Assembly (NCBI RefSeq): GCF_947504105.1
Contig: NZ_CANNGP010000038.1
Location: 1 to 41,925 of the forward strand
Source: an uncultured Tateyamaria sp.
GTDB taxonomy: Bacteria > Pseudomonadota > Alphaproteobacteria > Rhodobacterales > Rhodobacteraceae
Direction: 5' to 3'
Length of the DNA: 41,925 bases
The notes under the pieces: generated by a model
Told to the model about the DNA's origin: nothing
The model's database searches: none
What the model saw: the letters and a program-made list of their open reading frames with translations, nothing else
Shown: piece by piece, positions 4,309 through 14,338 of the stretch
How the letters are laid out: every line of letters begins with the position of its first letter
Numbering within the stretch: position 1 is the first letter of the stretch
Program-made: the position numbers and the translations under genes

Positions 4309-5133
4309 TTAGCTGAGCCACCGCTTGCGGCGGCGATACGACCGCACGTCGCGGAAGGATTTGCGCCCTTCGTCCGACATGCCGAGATAGAATTCTTTGA
4401 CGTCCGGGTTTTCGCGCAGTTCGGCGGCAGGGCCGTCCATCACGACACGACCGGATTCGAGGATGTAGCCATAATGCGCAAAACGCAGGGCCACATTTGT
4501 GTTCTGCTCGGCCAGAAGGAAGGTCACGCCTTCATTCTCGTTCACAGACTTCACGATGCCGAAAATCTGTTCGACCAACTGCGGCGCCAGCCCCATCGAC
4601 GGCTCGTCCAGCAGGATCGTCTCGGGCTTGGACATCAGTGCCCGACCAATCGCGGTCATCTGCTGCTCACCACCAGAGGTGTAGCCCGCCTGGCTTTTTC
4701 GGCGCTCACGCAGCCGCGGGAAGTAATTGTAAACCATCTCAAGATCAGCAGCGACTGCGCCCTTGCCGTCGGTCCGGGTATAGGCACCGGTCAGCAGGTT
4801 TTCCTCAACGGTGAGGTGCTCAAAACAGTGGCGGCCCTCCATCACCTGTACGACACCGCGCTTGACCAGATCGGCGGGGTCCTTCTCGGCCGTGTTTTCG
4901 CCGTGATAGTGGATCGACCCCTTGGTCACTTCACCGCGTTCGGACGCCAGCAGGCCCGAAATGGCTTTCAAAGTGGTGGTCTTGCCTGCGCCATTGCCGC
5001 CCAGCAAAGCGGTGATGCCGCCCTTGGGCACCTTGAGGCTGACGCCTTTCAACACGAGGATCACGTGGTTGTAGATCACCTCGATATTGTTGACCTCTAG
5101 AACGGTCTCGGTCTGTGCCTGGGCATCCAGCAT
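4309..5133 (-). CDS. livF: Branched-chain-amino-acid-type ABC transporter ATPase, LivF
   Basis: A cytoplasmic ATPase subunit of 274 residues of the Liv (HAAT) importer class. Walker A is GGNGAGKTTTLKA (near residue 45), the signature is TSGGEQQM and Walker B is ETILLDEPSMGLAP. It carries a basic C-terminal tail (RSYRRRKRWLS) that ordinary LivF proteins of about 235-250 residues lack. I recall this tail from LivF proteins encoded beside AMP-binding enzymes, which agrees with the two CoA ligases here. It sits between livK and the cupin gene. The substrate of the transporter cannot be read from this subunit. Confidence 0.9.
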   Translation of the reverse strand: MLDAQAQTETVLEVNNIEVIYNHVILVLKGVSLKVPKGGITALLGGNGAGKTTTLKAISGLLASERGEVTKGSIHYHGENTAEKDPADLVKRGVVQVMEGRHCFEHLTVEENLLTGAYTRTDGKGAVAADLEMVYNYFPRLRERRKSQAGYTSGGEQQMTAIGRALMSKPETILLDEPSMGLAPQLVEQIFGIVKSVNENEGVTFLLAEQNTNVALRFAHYGYILESGRVVMDGPAAELRENPDVKEFYLGMSDEGRKSFRDVRSYRRRKRWLS

Positions 5134-5201: not shown

Positions 5202-6476
5202 TTAGCAGCCCGCTTCGATGTTGTTCTCGCTGGCATAGGATGCGCTGTCCTCGTCGATCAGCGGCTGGATCACATCCATGTCCGTGGCCGAAAATTCAGA
5301 GATCAGCGACCATGTGCCCGCCGATGCATCCCACTGGGTCATGCCGATCAGGCCCGGACCACCGTGGTTTTCGCAGGACACGTTGAAGGATGGACCAAAG
5401 CCTGGCAGACCCAGTTCGGTCATCTTGGCCTCGGTGATTTCCAATGCTTCCATGCCGTCACGCATCATCGCGGGCGTGATCTCGGCCTCACCATGGATGT
5501 CCTGCGCGGTCTTGGCCGCCTCGGCCGCCAGCATCGCGGCGTAGAGGCCACGGTTGTAGAGCACCGTGCCGATCTGATCACCAGCACCAGCCGCCTTACC
5601 CGCATCCACAACGTATTTCTGGATGTCGTCAAAGACAGGGAAGTCGCTGCCCACACCGTGGAATGTCAGCGCCTTGTAGCCGTTGGCCGCGTCGCCTGCT
5701 GGCAGCACGTCGTTTTCAGATCCGGACCACCAGATACCGATGAAGTTTTCCATCGGATACCGGATGTTCGCCGCTTCCTGGATCGCCACCTGGTTCATCA
5801 CACCCCAGCCATACATGATGACATTGTCGGGACGCTCACGGCGGATTTGCAGCCATTGCGACTTTTGCTCCTGACCGGGGTGATCGACGGCCACCAGCAT
5901 CAGCTCGAAGCCGTGCTTTTCCGACAGCTCTTCGAGCGTGCGGATCGGCTCTTTGCCATAGGCGGAGTTGTGGTAGACCAGCGCGATTTTCTTGCCCGCT
6001 ATGTCACCCTGGCTCATCAGGTAGTTGATCGCACCCGACGCCCCGTTCCAGTAGTTGGCAGGGTAGTTGAAGGTGTGGCTGAAAACCTCACCATTCGCCG
6101 CCGAGGTCCGGCCATAACCCATGGTGTGCATGGGGATGCCGTCAGCCGTGGTCTTGGGGATCAGCTGATAGGTGATGCCGGTCGACAGCGGTTGGTAAAC
6201 CAGTGAGCCTTCACCCTTGGTCGACTCGTAGCATTCCACACCCTTTTCGGTGTTGTAGCCCGTCTCGCATTCCAGCACGCGCGTTGCCACGCCACCGATG
6301 CCGCCATCACGTTCGTTCAGCAGTGTAAAGTAGTCGGCGTAGCCATCGGCAAAGGGGATGCCCCCCGCCGCATATGGGCCTGTCCGGTAGCTGAGCGATG
6401 GGAACACGAGGTCCGCCATCACCGGGCTTGCCACCATCATGGCTGCGACGGCGTAGGTGCCTAGTTTGTATTTCAT
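5202..6476 (-). CDS. Liv-type periplasmic substrate-binding protein, LivK-like
   Basis: A 424-residue exported binding protein of the type-I periplasmic-binding fold used by Liv/HAAT importers. It has a signal peptide ending in SPVMA, followed by LVFPSLSYRTGPYAAGGIPF, where classic LivK proteins have a polar substrate-contacting loop. It is longer than classic LivJ/LivK (about 370). Two cysteine pairs are visible, near the N-terminus (LECETGYNTEKGVECYE) and at the C-terminus (SCENH and the final GC). The ATG at 6476 is chosen because GGGAGGAATT precedes it; a longer reading from 6542 is not supported. A palindrome at 6527-6548 lies just upstream in the gap after livM. The divergence from amino-acid binders and the flanking CoA ligases favour a non-amino-acid ligand. 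Confidence 0.9.
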   Translation of the reverse strand: MKYKLGTYAVAAMMVASPVMADLVFPSLSYRTGPYAAGGIPFADGYADYFTLLNERDGGIGGVATRVLECETGYNTEKGVECYESTKGEGSLVYQPLSTGITYQLIPKTTADGIPMHTMGYGRTSAANGEVFSHTFNYPANYWNGASGAINYLMSQGDIAGKKIALVYHNSAYGKEPIRTLEELSEKHGFELMLVAVDHPGQEQKSQWLQIRRERPDNVIMYGWGVMNQVAIQEAANIRYPMENFIGIWWSGSENDVLPAGDAANGYKALTFHGVGSDFPVFDDIQKYVVDAGKAAGAGDQIGTVLYNRGLYAAMLAAEAAKTAQDIHGEAEITPAMMRDGMEALEITEAKMTELGLPGFGPSFNVSCENHGGPGLIGMTQWDASAGTWSLISEFSATDMDVIQPLIDEDSASYASENNIEAGC

Positions 6477-6526
6477 CGGTAATTCCTCCCTAATTGGTTG
6501 TCCGATGCGAGCCCTGCGGCCCATCC

Positions 6527-6548
6527 GTAGGGCGGGGTTCACCCCGCC
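6527..6548 (+). repeat. GC-rich palindrome in the livM-livK gap
   Basis: GTAG is followed by a perfect eight-base stem GGCGGGGT, a two-base loop TC, and ACCCCGCC. It belongs to the same general type as the palindromes at 32580-32648 and 36983-37051 (GTA, one base, then GGCGG...CCGCC). There is no T-run, so an intrinsic terminator is unlikely. In the livM-livK transcript it would form a strong hairpin about 50 bases before the livK start, a position where such elements can protect the downstream message. The abundant binding protein often needs more transcript than the permeases; that role is inference. Confidence 0.6.
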
Positions 6549-6566: not shown

Positions 6567-7643
6567 TCAGTGCGGGAACGGCCACAATCTCAATTTCTCC
6601 TTGGCAACACGCCACAATTGCGCCAGCCCGTGCGGTTCAAGGATCAGGAACATGATGATCAGACCGCCCACGATCACAAGTTGGAAGTGTGCCACGATGT
6701 CTGTCGGCCAGCCCATCAGGTCCACACCCACGATTTTCAGGACCACGGGCAGGACCACCAGGAATGCGGCTCCGGCAAAGGAACCAAAGATTGACCCAAG
6801 GCCCCCGATGATGATCATGAACAGAACAAGGAATGACTTGGTGATACCGAACACCTCGCCGACTTCGACCGCGCCAAGGTAGACCGCAAAGAACAAGGCC
6901 CCCGACACACCGACAAAGAAGGACGACACAGCAAAGGCCGTCAGCTTGGCGCGTAGCGGGTTCACCCCGATGATCTCGGCCGCGATGTCCATATCACGGA
7001 TCGCCATCCATTCGCGCCCGATCGATCCGCGCGTCAGGTTACGCGCCAGGATCGCGGCGCCGACGGTAAAGACCAAACAGAACAGATAAGTGGCCCATGC
7101 TTCGGTATTCGGCCCGGTGACTTCGATGCCAAACACGGTACGCTCAGGCGCGTTGATCTGACCCGAGGCCGAGTAATTGTAGAACCATGACACCTTGTTG
7201 AAGAGCCAGACCAAGAAGAACTGCGCGGCCAGTGTCGCCACGGCAAGGTAGAACCCCTTGATCCGCAAACTTGGTAAGCCAAAGGCGGTGCCGACAAGGG
7301 CCGTAATGCCCCCAGCAAGGATGACGTGGAAAAAGATGTTCACATCCGGAAACGCGGTCATCAGCTTATAGCAGGCATAAGCACCCACAGCCATGAACCC
7401 GCCGGTGCCCAGCGACACCTGCCCACAATATCCCGTCAGGATGTTCAGCCCGATCGCTGCAATGGCGTAGATCAAGAAGGGCAAAAAGATAGAATTGACC
7501 AGATAATCCGTCATCACGAAGGGCATGACCAGCACGGCCACAGCCAGCACGACATAGTACCGATAGCGGTCGAACTTAATCGGGAAGGTCTGGCTATCCT
7601 GCGGATATGTCGTCGAAAAATCGCCCGCCTCACGATAGAACAT
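6567..7643 (-). CDS. livM: Branched-chain-amino-acid-type ABC transporter permease, LivM
   Basis: An inner-membrane permease of 358 residues with about eight to ten hydrophobic segments. The LivM family pattern is visible: LNILTGYCGQVSLGTGGFMAVGAYACY in the first third and the cytoplasmic EAA-like loop IGREWMAIRDMDIAAEIIGVNPLRAKLTAFAVSSF followed by GGLGSIFGSFAGA. A strong GGGAGGAG lies about 7 bases before the ATG. It would pair with LivH to form the channel. It is separated from livH by 468 bases that contain a gene on the opposite strand (7770-8099), which is unusual for a liv operon. Confidence 0.9.
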   Translation of the reverse strand: MFYREAGDFSTTYPQDSQTFPIKFDRYRYYVVLAVAVLVMPFVMTDYLVNSIFLPFLIYAIAAIGLNILTGYCGQVSLGTGGFMAVGAYACYKLMTAFPDVNIFFHVILAGGITALVGTAFGLPSLRIKGFYLAVATLAAQFFLVWLFNKVSWFYNYSASGQINAPERTVFGIEVTGPNTEAWATYLFCLVFTVGAAILARNLTRGSIGREWMAIRDMDIAAEIIGVNPLRAKLTAFAVSSFFVGVSGALFFAVYLGAVEVGEVFGITKSFLVLFMIIIGGLGSIFGSFAGAAFLVVLPVVLKIVGVDLMGWPTDIVAHFQLVIVGGLIIMFLILEPHGLAQLWRVAKEKLRLWPFPH

Positions 7644-7769
7644 CAGCTTGCTCCTCCCAGTGCGCGCGTGGTGAACGCGGCTTTAACCAACCTGTCGGGT
7701 TTCTGCGTTTTGCCACATTTTCCGCCCGGTCCCATGGCAATCTGAGCTTGGGTAAATGGAGTGGGATCT

Positions 7770-8099
7770 ATGACCGCAATTCTGGACGACATCCGTCGTC
7801 TCGATGCCGCGCATGCGCGGGGTGAAATCAATGCCGTCGATCTTGCGGCGGCCAAGTCCAAGCTATTCGAGGCCGTACCGGACGCGGACGAGATAACCGT
7901 CCATGCAACTGCGCGTACCGTGCCACGCCGCCCTCCTGCGGCGCGGCTTGGGCCAACGCTACTGCTGTGCATCTTCGTGCTGACGTTATGTGCCGGTTCG
8001 ACCTTGTTGCTGACCGGGGACCTCATGCTGGCAATGACATTGTCCATCACAGTGCTTGCCGCGTTGACGGTGACGTTGTTCCGGCAGTTGGATGGGTAG
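7770..8099 (+). CDS. Small membrane protein with a SHOCT-like N-terminus
   Basis: A 109-residue protein encoded against the direction of the surrounding liv genes. Residues 1-40 (ILDDIRRLDAAHARGEINA and following) resemble the SHOCT helical motif, a short module in bacterial membrane proteins thought to mediate oligomerisation. Residues about 60-105 form two hydrophobic segments (LGPTLLLCIFVLTLCAGSTLLL and LMLAMTLSITVLAALTVTLF). ATG at 7770 is preceded by GGAGTGG with 5-6 base spacing; the GTG three codons upstream would overlap that site. The gene ends 12 bases before the end of livH, so readthrough from either side would make antisense RNA. The function is unknown. Confidence 0.7.
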   Translation: MTAILDDIRRLDAAHARGEINAVDLAAAKSKLFEAVPDADEITVHATARTVPRRPPAARLGPTLLLCIFVLTLCAGSTLLLTGDLMLAMTLSITVLAALTVTLFRQLDG

Positions 8100-8111: not shown

Positions 8112-9143
8112 TCACACACGTTCAATGATCTTCTCCCCAAAGAGGCCCTGCGGGCGGAACACCAGAAAGATCAACGCAAGCACATAGGCAAACCAGTTTT
8201 CGGTCGCGTTCATGGTGAAGCCAAGGAACGCACCTGCCAGATCACCCGAGGACATGAAAAACTCAAAGAGCTTCTCGCCCACGCCGATAATCAGACCGCC
8301 GACGATGGCCCCAGGGATCGAGGTAAAGCCACCCAGCATCAACACCGGCAGGGCCTTCAATGCGATCAGTGATAGCGAGAATTGCACCCCCGATTTCGCG
8401 CCCCACATGATGCCGGCAACCAGCGCCACGAAACCCGCTACCGACCAGACCAGGATCCAGATGTAATTCAACGACACCCCCACAGACAAAGCCGCCTGGT
8501 GATCATCCGCCACTGCCCGCATGGCCCGACCTTGCTTGGTGTATTGCGAAAAGATCACCAGCGACGTCACCAGCAGGATCGCAATGATCGTCGCCGTGAT
8601 GTCCAGATTGTCGATAAAGAAGCCGTAGCCAAACAGGTTGAACGTCGCCTCGTCAATGGCAAGGTTGATGCCCTGCGGCAGGCACGCGCCCTCGGCCAGA
8701 CAAACATCCAGCTTCTTGATCTCAGAACCCCACATCAAGTCGGCGACGCCTTCCAGCAGGTACGCCAGACCGATGGTCGCCATGAACAGGATAATTGGCT
8801 CCTGCCCCACCAGATGCTTGAAGATGAAGCGCTGAACCATCCAGGCCAGCAGGATCATCACCAAGACGGTAAGCAGAATGGCGACAACCGAATGCACATG
8901 CCATCCGAAGTGATGAATCTTGGTCCCGAAGATCGCGTTGATCAGATGCGCGAATGGCACTTGCCCGGATTGTATACCTACCAGCGTCATCGCCGCAAAC
9001 AGCGCCATGACCCCTTGGGCGAAGTTGAAGATACCTGAAGCCTTGAAGATCAGGACAAAGCCAAGAGCAACTAGGGCATAAAGCACCCCGGCCATCAGAC
9101 CGTTGAGGAAAACCTCGCTCGCATAGATCAGTTGGTCAGACAT
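8112..9143 (-). CDS. livH: Branched-chain-amino-acid-type ABC transporter permease, LivH
   Basis: An inner-membrane permease of 343 residues. Family signatures are visible: NGLMAGVLYALVALGFVLIFKASGIFNFAQG near the N-terminus (given here only as a landmark), TKQGRAMRAVADDHQAALSVG in the cytoplasmic loop, and FTSIPGAIVGGLIIGVGE near the C-terminus. Compared with about 300 residues for classic LivH it has an extra loop around residues 130-165 containing two cysteines (LDVCLAEGACLP). Two adjacent ATGs exist; the one at 9143 is six bases from GAGGAGG, the better spacing. Its start lies inside the last codons of the preceding exported protein gene (9136-9143 overlap), so translation is coupled. Confidence 0.9.
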   Translation of the reverse strand: MSDQLIYASEVFLNGLMAGVLYALVALGFVLIFKASGIFNFAQGVMALFAAMTLVGIQSGQVPFAHLINAIFGTKIHHFGWHVHSVVAILLTVLVMILLAWMVQRFIFKHLVGQEPIILFMATIGLAYLLEGVADLMWGSEIKKLDVCLAEGACLPQGINLAIDEATFNLFGYGFFIDNLDITATIIAILLVTSLVIFSQYTKQGRAMRAVADDHQAALSVGVSLNYIWILVWSVAGFVALVAGIMWGAKSGVQFSLSLIALKALPVLMLGGFTSIPGAIVGGLIIGVGEKLFEFFMSSGDLAGAFLGFTMNATENWFAYVLALIFLVFRPQGLFGEKIIERV

Positions 9144-9720
9144 CATTATCCTCCTCGAAGGCTGCCCTGCCCACATTCAAAAAAGTGTGGAAACTGCCGG
9201 GCACTAGTTCGGTGGTTGCGATCATCACAAATCGCCCCGTCTCTTCTTTGGGCCGAAAAACACGATGCACAGAGAAGCCGGTTTTCTCGCGCAAATCTAT
9301 AAACTTGGCAGGCTCCGCTACCCATTTAAGACCAAGCGCAGTTGCGTAGTCCTCGACATTTGCGCGATCGCTATCTGTCCAACGCGAACGAACGCTTTCC
9401 ACAAGGCAAGATGCGTTTTGATTATCCACAAGCCTGAGAGTCACCCTTAAGGAGTTCGCCGTGTTGGAAAACTGTGGGTGCCCATCGCGTTCAGCCAGCA
9501 CTATCAGTCCCGTACCGTCAAAGTGATCGGCTTTACCGCCATCCCAAGCGTCAAGAAACGGCACGCAATGGTCTTCGACAACCGTCTGGACAGCCATCGC
9601 CACATCTCCGCTCATCTTTTTTGCGTGCAAACGTTCTTTGACCATCAAGAATCCAGGCGTTGCCGCAAGGGCGACTAGGGCACCGCCAAACGCGAACATC
9701 AGATGCTTGGATAGTCTCAT
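9136..9720 (-). CDS. Uncharacterised exported or anchored protein, third of three tandem two-cysteine paralogues
   Basis: A 194-residue protein I do not recognise. Residues 5-27 are hydrophobic (HLMFAFGGALVALAATPGFL), a signal anchor or signal peptide without a clear cleavage site. The rest is soluble, with only two cysteines, C52 in DHCVPFLDAW and C105 in NASCLVESV. The two upstream neighbours have the same arrangement: E-x-x-C-x-x-P/Y early in the mature part, then a second cysteine 52-56 residues later. The first base of its ATG overlaps the previous gene (ATGA, 9717-9720) and its end overlaps the livH start, so it is made together with the permease. A periplasmic role linked to the importer is likely by position only. 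Confidence 0.75.
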   Translation of the reverse strand: MRLSKHLMFAFGGALVALAATPGFLMVKERLHAKKMSGDVAMAVQTVVEDHCVPFLDAWDGGKADHFDGTGLIVLAERDGHPQFSNTANSLRVTLRLVDNQNASCLVESVRSRWTDSDRANVEDYATALGLKWVAEPAKFIDLREKTGFSVHRVFRPKEETGRFVMIATTELVPGSFHTFLNVGRAAFEEDNDV

Positions 9721-10304
9721 TTCACTGCCACCCCCATCAAGTCAGCGGTGTGATCCCGAAGCGGTTGATAACTCACCCGCAGACGGGTTAGCCCCTCAAA
9801 TGTCAGGTTCCAGTTCAGTGTGATCTCGGTCACCCGTCCGTCTCGGCGTGGGGCGGCTAGGAACGCCGCTGCAAAGGCGCGGTCCATCGATACTCGGCTG
9901 ACGGGTTCAAAGGCGGTTGTTGACACAAACCGTGCACCGGCCCCGCCCCGCCATTCGTTGAACGCCGCCAATAGCTCGGAATAGCTGAGCCCGTGGCTGA
10001 TGATCTCGCACGCCGGTTCGTCATACATGAACACCACCAGCGTGTTGTCCAAATCTGTTTCCTGATAGCCAAGCGCATAGGAATTCAGTGTACTTTCAAA
10101 GTACCGGCGGAAGGTGCGCGGGATCGGCATGATATCACGCGGCGACAGGCTGGCCGGGTCCTCAAGATAGGGCATGCAACGCGTTTCGATCACGCTGCAC
10201 AGGCCCGCCATCTCAGGCTGAGCCGGATCACAGATCGCTGGTTCCCCTGCCAGCGTAGGACCGGCCCAGAGGGCGGCACATATGGCCAGGAGCCTAGCTC
10301 TCAA
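9717..10304 (-). CDS. Uncharacterised exported protein, second of three tandem two-cysteine paralogues
   Basis: A 195-residue protein with a signal peptide (RARLLAICAALWAGPTLA, cleavage after TLA). Mature cysteines are C25, C36, C43 and C99. C43 in IETRCMPYLED and C99 in EPACEIIS correspond in position and local sequence to C52/C105 and C29/C81 of the neighbours. The C-terminal third (ITLNWNLTFEGLTRLRVSYQ) also parallels the end of the downstream protein (TTELVPGSFHTFLNVGR). The start is a TTG, with GGAG about 8 bases before it and no ATG or GTG available ahead of the signal peptide. The reading frame overlaps the end of the upstream gene by 11 bases. No known family is recognised. Confidence 0.75.
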   Translation of the reverse strand: MRARLLAICAALWAGPTLAGEPAICDPAQPEMAGLCSVIETRCMPYLEDPASLSPRDIMPIPRTFRRYFESTLNSYALGYQETDLDNTLVVFMYDEPACEIISHGLSYSELLAAFNEWRGGAGARFVSTTAFEPVSRVSMDRAFAAAFLAAPRRDGRVTEITLNWNLTFEGLTRLRVSYQPLRDHTADLMGVAVK

Positions 10305-10737
10305 GGTCCGTCTCCATCACTTGATAGTGCAGGCCCTCAGGCCGAATCTCGGCCATCAGGTGCAACTGAGGTTCGATCCATTGGTTACTGACATAGCGCC
10401 CGGGCTCTGGCAGATAGCGCCCGCTGGTCTTGTTGGCCTCTGCCCAAGACACAAAAGTAGGTTCGAAATCCGTGTTGCCGAGCTTGTACACGGAACAGGT
10501 GCGTTCACCGGCAGTGGGCGCGGCATCCAGCACCAAAAGATAACCATCGTCGGTCGGGCCATATGCACGCAGGCTTTCGTGCATGCCGTCGACGGGCTGC
10601 ACGGCAAGGCCATCAACAACTGGTTCCGTCAGATGTTCATAGGGATCAAGACAGCGCGCTTCGAACATATCCCATGCCGATCCGGCCCAGAGGGGCCCAG
10701 ACACGAATGTTCCGACAAGCGCCAGCGCCTTAATCAT
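10294..10737 (-). CDS. Uncharacterised exported protein, first of three tandem two-cysteine paralogues
   Basis: A 147-residue protein with a short signal peptide (MIKALALVGTFVSGPLWA). It has only two cysteines in the mature part, C29 in FEARCLDPYEHL and C81 in GERTCSVYKLG, 52 residues apart, matching the layout of the two following proteins. It is shorter than they are because the region after the second cysteine is reduced. ATG at 10737 is chosen since it opens the signal peptide directly; an upstream alternative adds MGCH. The start lies inside the final codons of livG (stop at 10730-10732), so translation is coupled to the ATPase gene. The function is unknown. Confidence 0.75.
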   Translation of the reverse strand: MIKALALVGTFVSGPLWAGSAWDMFEARCLDPYEHLTEPVVDGLAVQPVDGMHESLRAYGPTDDGYLLVLDAAPTAGERTCSVYKLGNTDFEPTFVSWAEANKTSGRYLPEPGRYVSNQWIEPQLHLMAEIRPEGLHYQVMETDLES

Positions 10738-11548
10738 GTGACACCCCAAGATAGGCGTCGATCACATCCTGGTTGTTGCGCACATCGTCTGGCGTGCCAT
10801 CGCCGATCTTCTTTCCATAGTCCATCACGACCACCCTGTCGGACAGGTCCATGACAACACCCATGTCGTGTTCGATCAGCGCGATGGTGGTCCCAAACTC
10901 ATCATTCATGTCGAGGATGAAGCGGCTCATGTCCTCCTTCTCTTCAACGTTCATGCCCGCCATGGGCTCATCCAGCAGCAAGAGTGACGGCTCAGCCGCC
11001 AACGCCCGGGCCAGTTCCACCCGTTTCTTCAGTCCGTAGGGCAGCCGTGCCACAGGCGTCTTGCGGATGGCTTGAATTTCAAGGAAATCGATAATTTTCT
11101 CAGCGATTTCGCGGTTGGCCGTCTCCTCGGCCTCGGCTTTCCCCCGCCATATGGCCTGCCCAAACAGACCCGTCTTCATATGGGTCAAACGCCCGGTCAT
11201 GACGTTATCAAGCACGGACATACCCTCAAAAAGGGCAATGTTCTGAAACGTCCGTGCAATCCCCTGACGGGCCACTTCAAACGGTTTCATCTGTGGCCGT
11301 GGGGCGCCCTTGTAATACACCTGCCCCTCTTGGGGGATATAAAAACCAGAGATGACATTCAGCATCGACGACTTACCAGCACCGTTGGGCCCGATGATGG
11401 CGCGAATTTCGCCTTCGCGGATGTCAAACGAAATATCCTTGATCGCCTCAACCCCACCAAAGCGCAGGGTGATGTTCTTCATTTCCATAACTACGCCGCC
11501 GATCTTGCGGCCATCGGCGGTGGTGTAGCCTTCGGTCTGATCAAGCAT
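10730..11548 (-). CDS. livG: Branched-chain-amino-acid-type ABC transporter ATPase, LivG
   Basis: A cytoplasmic ATPase of 272 residues. Walker A is GPNGAGKSSMLNVISG, the LivG-specific GIARTFQNIALFEGMSVLDNV follows, the signature region is LPYGLKKRVELARALA, and Walker B is PSLLLLDEPMAGMN. The signature motif departs from the usual LSYGQQRRLEIA of LivG proteins: GLKKR replaces GQQRR, a variant I associate with Liv systems coded beside acyl-CoA synthetases. GGAGATGATGC precedes the ATG. It is the first transporter gene after the acyl-CoA synthetase, separated by a 372-base gap holding a small opposite-strand gene. Confidence 0.9.
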   Translation of the reverse strand: MLDQTEGYTTADGRKIGGVVMEMKNITLRFGGVEAIKDISFDIREGEIRAIIGPNGAGKSSMLNVISGFYIPQEGQVYYKGAPRPQMKPFEVARQGIARTFQNIALFEGMSVLDNVMTGRLTHMKTGLFGQAIWRGKAEAEETANREIAEKIIDFLEIQAIRKTPVARLPYGLKKRVELARALAAEPSLLLLDEPMAGMNVEEKEDMSRFILDMNDEFGTTIALIEHDMGVVMDLSDRVVVMDYGKKIGDGTPDDVRNNQDVIDAYLGVSHD

Positions 11549-11920: not shown

Positions 11921-13891
11921 TCACTCCGCCGCCATCTTCTGCGCAACGGCGGATGTGGCCGCCGACCGGATCTCGAGCGTCGCTGAAATCGAACCCTTGC
12001 GCCCGTCCTCGTAGGTTACCTCGGTTGTCGTCGACACCAGCACCGATCCGTCATAGAGCGCCGCGATGATGTCGGCGTATTTCTCCTCAATGATGCGTCT
12101 GCGAACCTTACGCGTGCGGGTCAACTCACCGTCATCAGCGTCAAGTTCTTTATGCAACACAATGAAGCGATGCACTTGGCAGCCAGACAGCATCTCGTCT
12201 TCGGCCACGGATTGGTTCACATCCTCAACATGCGCCTGGATGGTCGCAAGAACCTGCGGATGCCCCGCCAGCTCTTGATAAGACGCATAGGCGATGTTGT
12301 TCCGCTCGGCCCAGTTGCCAACCGCCGTCAGGTCAATGTTGATGAAAGCCGTACATTCCTCGCGTGCATCGCCAAAGACCACGGCCTCGAGGATGTTGGG
12401 GAAGAACTTGAGCTTGTTCTCGACATACTTGGGCGCGAACAGCGCGCCTGACGCCATCTGACCCACATCCTTGGCTCGGTCGATAATGCGCAGATGACCG
12501 GTGTCTTCTTCAATGAAACCAGCGTCGCCAGTGGCCACCCAACCTTCGGCATCCTTGGTATCGGCAGTGCTTTCCGCGTTCTTGTAATACTCCACGAACA
12601 CGCCGGGCGAGCGATAGAACACCTCGCCATTGGGCTCTATCTTCAGCTCCACGCCGGGGCATTGCACACCCACCGTGTCGCTGCGCACCTCGCCATCTGG
12701 CTGGGCGGTGATGAATACGGTCGCTTCGGTCTGACCATAAAGCTGCTTCAGGTTAATTCCTAAAGAGCGATAGAAATCAAAGATTTCTGGGCCAATCGCC
12801 TCGCCCGCCGTATAGCCAACGCGCACACGCGAAAAGCCAAGCGTGTTCTTGAGTGGCCCATAGACCATCAACTCACCCAACCCGTATTTGATCCGGTCCA
12901 TGAACCCCACGGGCTTGCCATCCAGAATGGCGGGACCAACCTTGCGGGCGTGCGCCATGAAGTAGTGGAACATCCGCTGCTTGAACGCGCCAGCATCCTC
13001 CATCCGGATCATCACGTTAGTCAGTTGCGTCTCGAACACACGCGGCGGGGCGAAATAGTAGGTTGGCCCGATTTCGCGCAGGTCCACATGCATCGTGTCA
13101 GCACTCTCAGGGCAATTCGTGCAGAAGCCCGACCACAGCGCCTGCCCCACGGAAAAGATGAAATCACCGACCCATGCCATCGGCAGATAGGCGAGGATGT
13201 CGTCGGTTTGGCGCAATCCATCAAATTCGGACGACGATTTCGATGTCTCGATCACGTTTCGGTTGGACAGCACGACGCCCTTGGGTTTTCCCGTCGTTCC
13301 AGAGGTATAAAGCATTACGCACGTGCTGTCGTAGTCCAGAACCGCGATCCGTTTGGCCATTTCCGGCGTCAGCTCATCCCGCTTGGCCCGGCCAGCATCC
13401 TGCACATGGCTATACTGATGCAGCTTGGAATGATCGTATTTCCGCAAACCTCGCGGATCGAGGTAAATCATCTGCTCGAATTCGGGCAGTTGGCCCTGCA
13501 CCTCGATCACCTTGTCGACCTGCTCCTGATCGCCTGCGATCACGAACCGCGCACCGGAATGGTCGAGGGTATAGGCCATCTCGTCGGCTGCGGCGTCCTG
13601 ATAAAGCGGTACTGGGATCGCGCCTGCCATCTGCGCGGACATCATGGACCAGTACAAGTACGGACGGTTGCGCCCGATGACGGCGATATGGTCGCCGGGT
13701 TGCACGCCCAAATCAATCAGCCCGAGCGCCAGCGCTTCGACCTCTTCCAACGTTTCCGACCAGGTCCAGCTCTGCCATATCCCGAACTCTTTCTCGCGAT
13801 AGGCTAGGGCCGATCCGAATTCCTTGGCATTCCGGTGTAGCAGCGCAGGTACGGATTTCAGCCCGCTTGCGCCCTCGGACGACTTGACCAC
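11921..13891 (-). CDS. Long-chain acyl-CoA synthetase-like AMP-binding enzyme
   Basis: A 656-residue adenylate-forming ligase of the large long-chain acyl-CoA synthetase group (FadD15-like, COG1022), expected to form acyl-CoA from a fatty or other hydrophobic acid. Visible motifs in order: VMLYTSGTTGKPKGVVLSN (ATP loop), YGQTEATV (acid and adenine site), GWVATGDAGFIEEDTGHLRI, then DRAKDVGQMASGALFAPKYV. In the last, most related enzymes have R/K-KDxxK/x-TSGGxxI/VAP. The start is the GTG at 13891, with GGGGAGG seven bases before it; a longer frame from 13936 lacks such a site. It is the first gene of the liv block and, with the PaaK-like ligase at the other end, brackets the transporter. Confidence 0.9.
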   Translation of the reverse strand: MVKSSEGASGLKSVPALLHRNAKEFGSALAYREKEFGIWQSWTWSETLEEVEALALGLIDLGVQPGDHIAVIGRNRPYLYWSMMSAQMAGAIPVPLYQDAAADEMAYTLDHSGARFVIAGDQEQVDKVIEVQGQLPEFEQMIYLDPRGLRKYDHSKLHQYSHVQDAGRAKRDELTPEMAKRIAVLDYDSTCVMLYTSGTTGKPKGVVLSNRNVIETSKSSSEFDGLRQTDDILAYLPMAWVGDFIFSVGQALWSGFCTNCPESADTMHVDLREIGPTYYFAPPRVFETQLTNVMIRMEDAGAFKQRMFHYFMAHARKVGPAILDGKPVGFMDRIKYGLGELMVYGPLKNTLGFSRVRVGYTAGEAIGPEIFDFYRSLGINLKQLYGQTEATVFITAQPDGEVRSDTVGVQCPGVELKIEPNGEVFYRSPGVFVEYYKNAESTADTKDAEGWVATGDAGFIEEDTGHLRIIDRAKDVGQMASGALFAPKYVENKLKFFPNILEAVVFGDAREECTAFINIDLTAVGNWAERNNIAYASYQELAGHPQVLATIQAHVEDVNQSVAEDEMLSGCQVHRFIVLHKELDADDGELTRTRKVRRRIIEEKYADIIAALYDGSVLVSTTTEVTYEDGRKGSISATLEIRSAATSAVAQKMAAE

Positions 13892-14338
13892 GTATATTCC
13901 TCCCCAGCGCACCCCCTCTCCCAAAGCGGTGCGCATGATCGCTCAGACGATTCTTGCTGCGTCTAAGGATGTCGTCCATACGCTGCGCGTCAACTTTTTC
14001 CTGATGTTTTCCCAAACCTTACGAATTGTAACAGAGGGCACATGTGATCCGTCACGCATCGTTTTTCGGATATCTGCAAAATCCAAGGCCCGGGCGAACA
14101 GCTGCGTCAGAGCACCATGCCCAAGGTGTCACACTGACCTGAACTGATGGCAGCTTTGCGCAAGTTGCCGACGATCATCCAAGTCGAGCGAGGGGCAGCT
14201 GGCAGATTTCAGCCGTGGCACGGATCACAGAGGCCGTTGTGTTGATGGGCCATTATTGTGCCGTTATCGTCCTGAGCAACTGCTCTCGCGCGTGGATGGG
14301 CGTCCTTCTATACAAGGCAAAACCTCGTTGGAAAATAC
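13892..14338. other. 447-base intergenic region between divergent genes
   Basis: No convincing gene on either strand. It should hold the promoter of the minus-strand liv block. A weak candidate -35 (TTGACG, minus strand, 13988-13993) has no good -10 at proper spacing. A dyad GTGA-TCCG-TCAC is at 14044-14055, about 150 bases upstream of the acyl-CoA synthetase start, and might be an operator. Base composition is lower in GC in the 13990-14080 part than in the flanking genes, as expected for a control region. Confidence 0.4.

What the first reader, a model, noticed from the sequence alone, without database searches (positions are those of the whole stretch)
9136..10737. Three tandem, translationally coupled exported proteins inside a liv operon share a two-cysteine layout
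Between livG and livH lie three consecutive genes of 147, 195 and 194 residues, each with an N-terminal hydrophobic export or anchor segment and each with a cysteine in a similar context (FEARCLDPYEHL, IETRCMPYLED, VEDHCVPFLDAW). A second cysteine follows 52, 56 and 53 residues later (GERTC, EPAC, NASC), and the two longer ones share a similar C-terminal beta-like stretch. All three junctions overlap (livG/first, 11 bases, ATGA, 8 bases with livH). This looks like an old tandem duplication of a secreted disulfide-bonded protein dedicated to a Liv-type importer. I know of no named family for it. They could form a periplasmic accessory complex that delivers or gates the substrate.
Basis: partly seen in the sequence, partly recalled or inferred. 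Interest (0 to 1): 0.75.

Follow-up and report, generated by a model that had tools for sequence, protein, structure and literature searches.

The report
Swappable exported proteins in importer operon
Inside a bacterial gene set for a nutrient importer lies a slot where related bacteria carry different combinations of small exported proteins of unknown family, probably helpers of that importer whose exact job is unknown.

Summary
The three genes are real: A (147 aa), B (195 aa) and C (194 aa) lie between livG and livH, with overlaps of 8, 11, 4 and 8 bases and Cys spacings of 52, 56 and 53. None hits Pfam, NCBIfam, PHROGs or PADLOC at E up to 1. A fixed triplet does not hold up. The livG-livH gap is a variable slot: 450 bases or more in 20 of 79 close relatives, and in nine states across 20 genomes of the genus. 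A and B are probably distant homologues: same predicted order of helices and strands, both cysteines in matching elements, 0 of 150 shuffles as good, but HHalign probability only 6.5%. Kinship of C is not shown; C was found in this genome alone. At its place the sister genome has an A-family paralogue and six others an unlike protein, D. A, B and D are under purifying selection. In 394 sampled family genomes 18 of 19 A, B and D hits lie in this slot. Best reading: lineage-specific, disulfide-stapled periplasmic accessories of one Liv-type importer paired with an acyl-CoA ligase. Function is inferred. Main rival: a tolerant passenger site.

The parts
10294..10737 (-). gene A: 147-aa exported protein, family 'WxxF..RCLxP...ETDLES'
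   Evidence: alignment A1; AF2 pLDDT 81.6; 13 of 14 family hits in the slot
9717..10304 (-). gene B: 195-aa exported protein, TTG start inside the ETDLES codons of A
   Evidence: A2; AF2 pLDDT 65
9136..9720 (-). gene C: 194-aa orphan with N-terminal hydrophobic segment, two cysteines
   Evidence: 1 of 61 genomes (itself)
10730..11548 (-). livG, ATPase; its last codons (His-Asp-stop) contain the ATG of gene A
   Evidence: Pfam ABC_tran and BCA_ABC_TP_C
8112..9143 (-). livH, permease
   Evidence: Pfam BPD_transp_2
6567..7643 (-). livM, permease
   Evidence: Pfam BPD_transp_2
5202..6542 (-). livK, substrate-binding protein (ORF from its first possible start)
   Evidence: Pfam Peripla_BP_6
4309..5133 (-). 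livF, ATPase
   Evidence: Pfam ABC_tran
11921..13936 (-). AMP-binding acyl-CoA ligase at the head of the gene set
   Evidence: Pfam AMP-binding

Best explanation
The stretch is a lineage-variable accessory slot of one Liv-type (branched-chain amino acid family) importer operon that is paired with an acyl-CoA ligase. A and B are distantly related small proteins, exported by Sec and probably stapled by one disulfide between helix 1 and the third strand. C occupies a third position whose gene is exchanged between close relatives. They are translated by overlap with livG and with each other. In the periplasm they most likely dock on LivK or on the outer face of LivH-LivM and tune substrate capture or release. 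Shown: genes, overlaps, variability, near-exclusive place, purifying selection on A, B and D. Predicted: fold order and cysteine placement of A and B. Inferred: export, disulfide, coupling, docking and tuning.
For: Near-exclusive place in 394 sampled family genomes: A 13 of 14 hits directly behind livG, B 4 of 4, D 1 of 1. Median dN/dS in the genus: A 0.24, B 0.09, D 0.13 (livG 0.026, livH 0.057). Slot large in 20 of 79 loci, while livM-livK is never large (0 of 77). Translational wiring: A starts on the ATG in livG's His-Asp-stop codons. In 12 of 13 genus relatives printed B starts on a TTG inside A's last codons, behind GGAG (10) or GGAA (2) that A's own codons supply; the 13th, which lacks A, has an ATG behind its own purine-rich stretch. 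Matching predicted layout of A and B and 0 of 150 shuffles. A/E paralogy.
Against: 59 of 79 loci have the importer with a short gap in the slot, so the proteins are not required for transport in general. Two of 20 genus members carry decayed remnants and one is empty. Three of the 20 occupied loci (L079, L084, L094) hold genes that do not look exported (by eye). HHalign probabilities for A/B are low (1.8%, 6.5%), and adding E to the A profile weakens the A/B match (7 of 150 shuffles). No link between a Cys pair in a LivH loop and slot occupancy. No solved structure matches the A or B model at E 0.001. One A-like hit (L135) has no liv gene beside it. A second gap of the operon, livH-livM, is also variable (26 of 80).
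Confidence: 0.5

Rival explanations
1. Passenger site: the livG-livH junction tolerates inserts because livG's last codons supply a start codon and overlap keeps downstream translation going. The proteins are ordinary exported proteins with envelope jobs unrelated to uptake.
For: Most loci lack them (59 of 79). Decayed remnants in G002 and G011. Unlike genes also enter this slot (L079, L084, L094). A second variable gap lies between livH and livM (26 of 80 loci at 450 bases or more) with mostly other kinds of gene among the longest ORFs printed.
Against: Only 1 of 19 A, B and D hits in 394 sampled genomes lies elsewhere, which is unlike free passengers; A keeps this place in 12 genera.
Confidence: 0.33
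2. Exchangeable envelope guards: the slot holds periplasmic proteins under pressure to diversify, for instance against phage entry or competitor toxins, hitch-hiking on a constitutive operon.
For: Clean replacement of the third gene between sister genomes (identity 0.45-0.59 in the 100-base bins inside C; 0.80 or more over B, and over livH apart from one bin of 0.70 that straddles the junction). Recombination signal at A (dS 0.10 against 0.72 for livG and 0.65 for livH in the same pair). At least 6, 5 and 5 state changes of A, B and D on the flanking-gene tree (remnants counted as absent).
Against: No PADLOC or PHROG match for A, B, C; no relative of A or C in viral contigs (B and D not scanned there); A, B and D are under purifying, not diversifying, selection on average.
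Confidence: 0.1
3. C is unrelated to A and B and shares the two-cysteine spacing by chance.
For: Only 14 or 15 residues of B and C align; A against C gives nothing; chance of the spacing alone 0.10.
Against: B/C local score reached by only 1 of 150 shuffles; same operon place, same order hydrophobic start - Cys - Cys, and an A paralogue at that place in the sister genome.
Confidence: 0.45

Closest known systems
Liv / HAAT-type branched-chain amino acid ABC importers (LivFGHMK)
   Same: All five importer parts are here with their Pfam domains.
   Different: Extra exported genes sit between livG and livH, and an acyl-CoA ligase heads the set; the substrate may not be an amino acid (inference).
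Mog1/PsbP-like and SciW-type small alpha/beta proteins
   Same: Weak Foldseek neighbours of the B model (PsbP, SciW). That these form one fold class is recalled, not from a call.
   Different: Best E 0.015, TM 0.25-0.38 for the rows named, no sequence match; below any membership standard.
YbjN (E. coli)
   Same: Weak Foldseek neighbour of the A model (prob 0.60, E 0.26).
   Different: TM 0.32-0.34; YbjN is not exported (recalled); the A profile was not searched against PDB sequences.

Membership tests
Liv/HAAT-type ABC importer operon | Two ATPases, two BPD_transp_2 permeases, one Peripla_BP_6 binding protein together | tested here: met
Liv/HAAT-type ABC importer operon | Transports branched-chain amino acids | not testable with these tools
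   no substrate data; the ligase next door argues for a carboxylate (inference)
Any Pfam, NCBIfam or PADLOC family, for A, B, C | Profile match | tested here: not met
   0 families at E up to 1
Any PHROG, for A, B, C | Profile match | tested here: not met
   0 families at E up to 1
Mog1/PsbP-like fold, for B | Structural match to a solved member | tested here: inconclusive
   best E 0.015, TM below 0.4, model pLDDT 65
YbjN fold, for A | Structural match to a solved member | tested here: inconclusive
   E 0.26, TM about 0.33
One superfamily A + B | Sequence profile similarity above chance | tested here: inconclusive
   0 of 150 shuffles but HHalign probability 6.5%; 7 of 150 when E is added
One superfamily A + B | Same order of secondary structure with both cysteines in matching elements | tested here: met
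One superfamily A + B + C | C matches A or B over a domain | tested here: not met
   14 or 15 residues only with B, nothing with A
One superfamily A + B + C | C has the same fold | not tested

The most novel reading that the evidence does not exclude
The livG-livH junction is a dedicated cassette slot in which Rhodobacteraceae swap fast-evolving, disulfide-stapled periplasmic modulators of one importer, so that an otherwise constant transporter is retuned from strain to strain by exchanging accessory proteins and not the binding protein itself.
Probability: 0.28. Interest if true: 0.72.

Novelty: new variant of a known kind. Interest (0 to 1): 0.5.

Why it matters
ABC importers of the Liv type are usually described as complete with five parts (general knowledge). 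A slot inside the operon that carries unnamed exported families, found almost only there and exchanged between close relatives, would add a layer of control or specificity that family libraries do not yet name. It offers a natural experiment: sister strains have LivH 96-98% identical to the window's yet carry different slot genes.

Tried and rejected
A conserved triplet as the unit: rejected, A+B+C was seen in one genome only. A Cys pair in a LivH loop as docking partner: of 20 occupied loci 9 have it and 11 lack it, and many short-gap loci have it. Viral or defence origin: no match for A, B, C in PADLOC or PHROGs, none for A and C in viral contigs (the A scan used one peptide pattern). PHROGs gave weak hits for the other slot proteins E (0.08) and F (0.015 and 0.17). 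Ten other slot proteins in Pfam and NCBIfam: one hit each at E about 0.1, far below cut-off. D as a relative of the other four-cysteine slot proteins: spacing alike but no profile match. F with L073: related to each other (P 8e-7), but F+L073 do not match A+E (76 of 150 shuffles as good). A viral structure library for the A model: nothing at E 0.001. Plasmid search with B: none. Solved-structure sequence search with C and B: no hit better than E 0.2; A was not searched there. Literature: five answered searches listed 1, 2, 20 of 43, 20 of 44 and 0 papers; no title or abstract beginning there concerns such a slot. I opened no paper.

Full report
What is there. On the minus strand the order is acyl-CoA ligase (11921-13936), livG, A, B, C, livH, livM, livK, livF. 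B has two further conserved cysteines, 25 and 36. None of the three matches Pfam, NCBIfam, PADLOC or PHROGs at E up to 1.

Surroundings in relatives. In 79 the livG-livH gap could be measured: 59 are short, 20 are 450 bases or more. Of the 20, by reading the ORFs, 14 hold A, B or D family members (L030-L036, L056, L077, L082, L087, L092, L104, L108), 3 hold other proteins with an export-like start and several cysteines (L049, L073, L107), and 3 hold genes without an evident export segment (L079, L084, L094). The livM-livK gap is never large (0 of 77). The livH-livM gap is large in 26 of 80 and ligase-livG in 4 of 70, so livG-livH is not the only variable gap. The longest ORFs printed for the livH-livM gap are mostly of other kinds.

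The genus. 20 genomes (own plus 19) show: A+B+C in the window's genome; A+B+E in G003 (the same place as L030); A+B+D in six (G005, G006, G012, G013, G016, G018); A+B in five (G008, G009, G014, G015, G017); B alone in G010; D alone in G001 and G007; D+F in G004; remnants in G002 (D with an internal deletion) and G011 (decayed B); empty in G019. That is nine states with the two remnants taken as one. On a quick tree of livG plus part of livH (26 rows, of which six from outside the genus) A, B and D need at least 6, 5 and 5 changes, remnants counted as absent (of 23 inner branches nine are starred and nine open). Between the window and L030 identity per 100 bases is 0.80 or more over livG, A, B and livH, but 0.45-0.59 in the bins inside C, with one bin of 0.70 across the C/livH junction: the third gene is replaced, not diverged. 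In the same pair dS is 0.10 at A, 0.40 at B, 0.72 at livG and 0.65 at livH, a sign of recombination into the slot.

Are the genes maintained? Median dN/dS in the genus is 0.24 for A (47 of 55 pairs usable), 0.09 for B (55 of 55) and 0.13 for D (12 of 15), against 0.026 for livG and 0.057 for livH. They are selected as proteins, A loosely. C could not be tested, having no relative.

Tied to the importer? With the A profile 14 of 394 sampled family genomes (13 genera) have a hit. 13 of these (12 genera) lie directly behind livG, one of them (L131) with four stops in the frame; the 14th (L135) has no liv gene beside it. With the B profile 4 of 394, all in the slot. With the D profile 1 of 394, in the slot. 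The profile searches scored at most the best eight or nine candidates per genome, so distant copies elsewhere could be missed. C: in 61 and 394 genomes only itself and one short hit of E 7.6e-4 inside an open frame of 1186 aa, taken as spurious.

How are they related? AlphaFold2 gives A a good model (pLDDT 81.6, pTM 0.78) and B a moderate one (65.3, 0.68). Both read helix, three strands, helix, four strands; B has extra short helices. In A Cys29 is in helix 1 and Cys81 in strand 79-86; in B Cys43 is in helix 1 and Cys99 in strand 98-103. HHalign pairs both cysteines and a Trp. Its probability is low (1.8% with 12 A rows; 6.5% with 25), yet 0 of 150 column shuffles that keep the cysteines reach the score; with E added to A it is 7 of 150. 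E, the third gene of G003, is an A paralogue (P 1.1e-5, probability 82%, 0 of 150). B and C match over 15 residues only (1 of 150); A and C do not match. Coordinates of the models were not available, so no superposition was made. Foldseek found nothing at E 0.001 in the PDB for A or B, nor in BFVD for A.

Wiring. livG ends His-Asp-stop, and the ATG of A lies inside those codons; the same arrangement is present in loci whose slot is short (L037, L044, L058). The A family tends to end in ETDLES: 8 of 12 rows of A1 exactly, 10 of 12 with ETDLE. In 12 of 13 genus relatives printed the codons of this end supply GGAG (10) or GGAA (2) and the TTG on which B starts; the 13th (L011) lacks A and has an ATG behind its own purine-rich stretch. 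The ending is also kept where no B follows (L104 with ETDLEA; L108, L125, L129 with ETDLES), so it matters to the protein itself.

Function. Best reading: periplasmic accessories of this importer. The strongest argument is the near-exclusive place over 12 genera; the strongest counter-argument is that most importers seen lack them. What they bind and do is inference.

Noticed in passing
window 7761-8099 (+): A 112-aa ORF on the strand opposite to the operon between livH and livM, with a short N-terminal motif and a membrane segment; similar ORFs recur in the same gap in L031-L034 and L036. It reminds me of SHOCT-domain proteins (recalled); Pfam gave nothing at E 0.001.
   Followed up: partly
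LivH residues 134-183 (gene at window 8112-9143, -): A loop of LivH carries a Cys pair (CLAEGAC) in Tateyamaria, Shimia, Aestuariivita and Sulfitobacter loci but is shorter and without Cys in Ruegeria and Roseobacter loci; no link to slot occupancy.
   Followed up: yes
L030, livH-livM gap: A 127-aa ORF with an export-like start and two cysteines about 55 apart in the part printed sits in the livH-livM gap of the sister genome, so slot-like proteins may also enter the second gap.
   Followed up: no
slot proteins of L049, L087 (second), L107 (both), L124 (third), L134 (second), compared with the D family: Six slot proteins without profile similarity have four cysteines at steps of 47-61, 42-57 and 31-42 residues, much like the D family (63, 45, 33); two of them have further cysteines. 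This hints at a second, four-cysteine kind in the slot.
   Followed up: partly
L079:4466-5008 and L094:4484-5008: Two loci hold an unrelated gene with a WTKKxLxEILGEDRGL motif in the livG-livH slot, without an evident export segment.
   Followed up: no
L135:1426-1899: An A-like ORF with a lipoprotein-like start lies without liv genes beside it, next to a large open frame on the other strand, and runs to the end of the fetched stretch.
   Followed up: no
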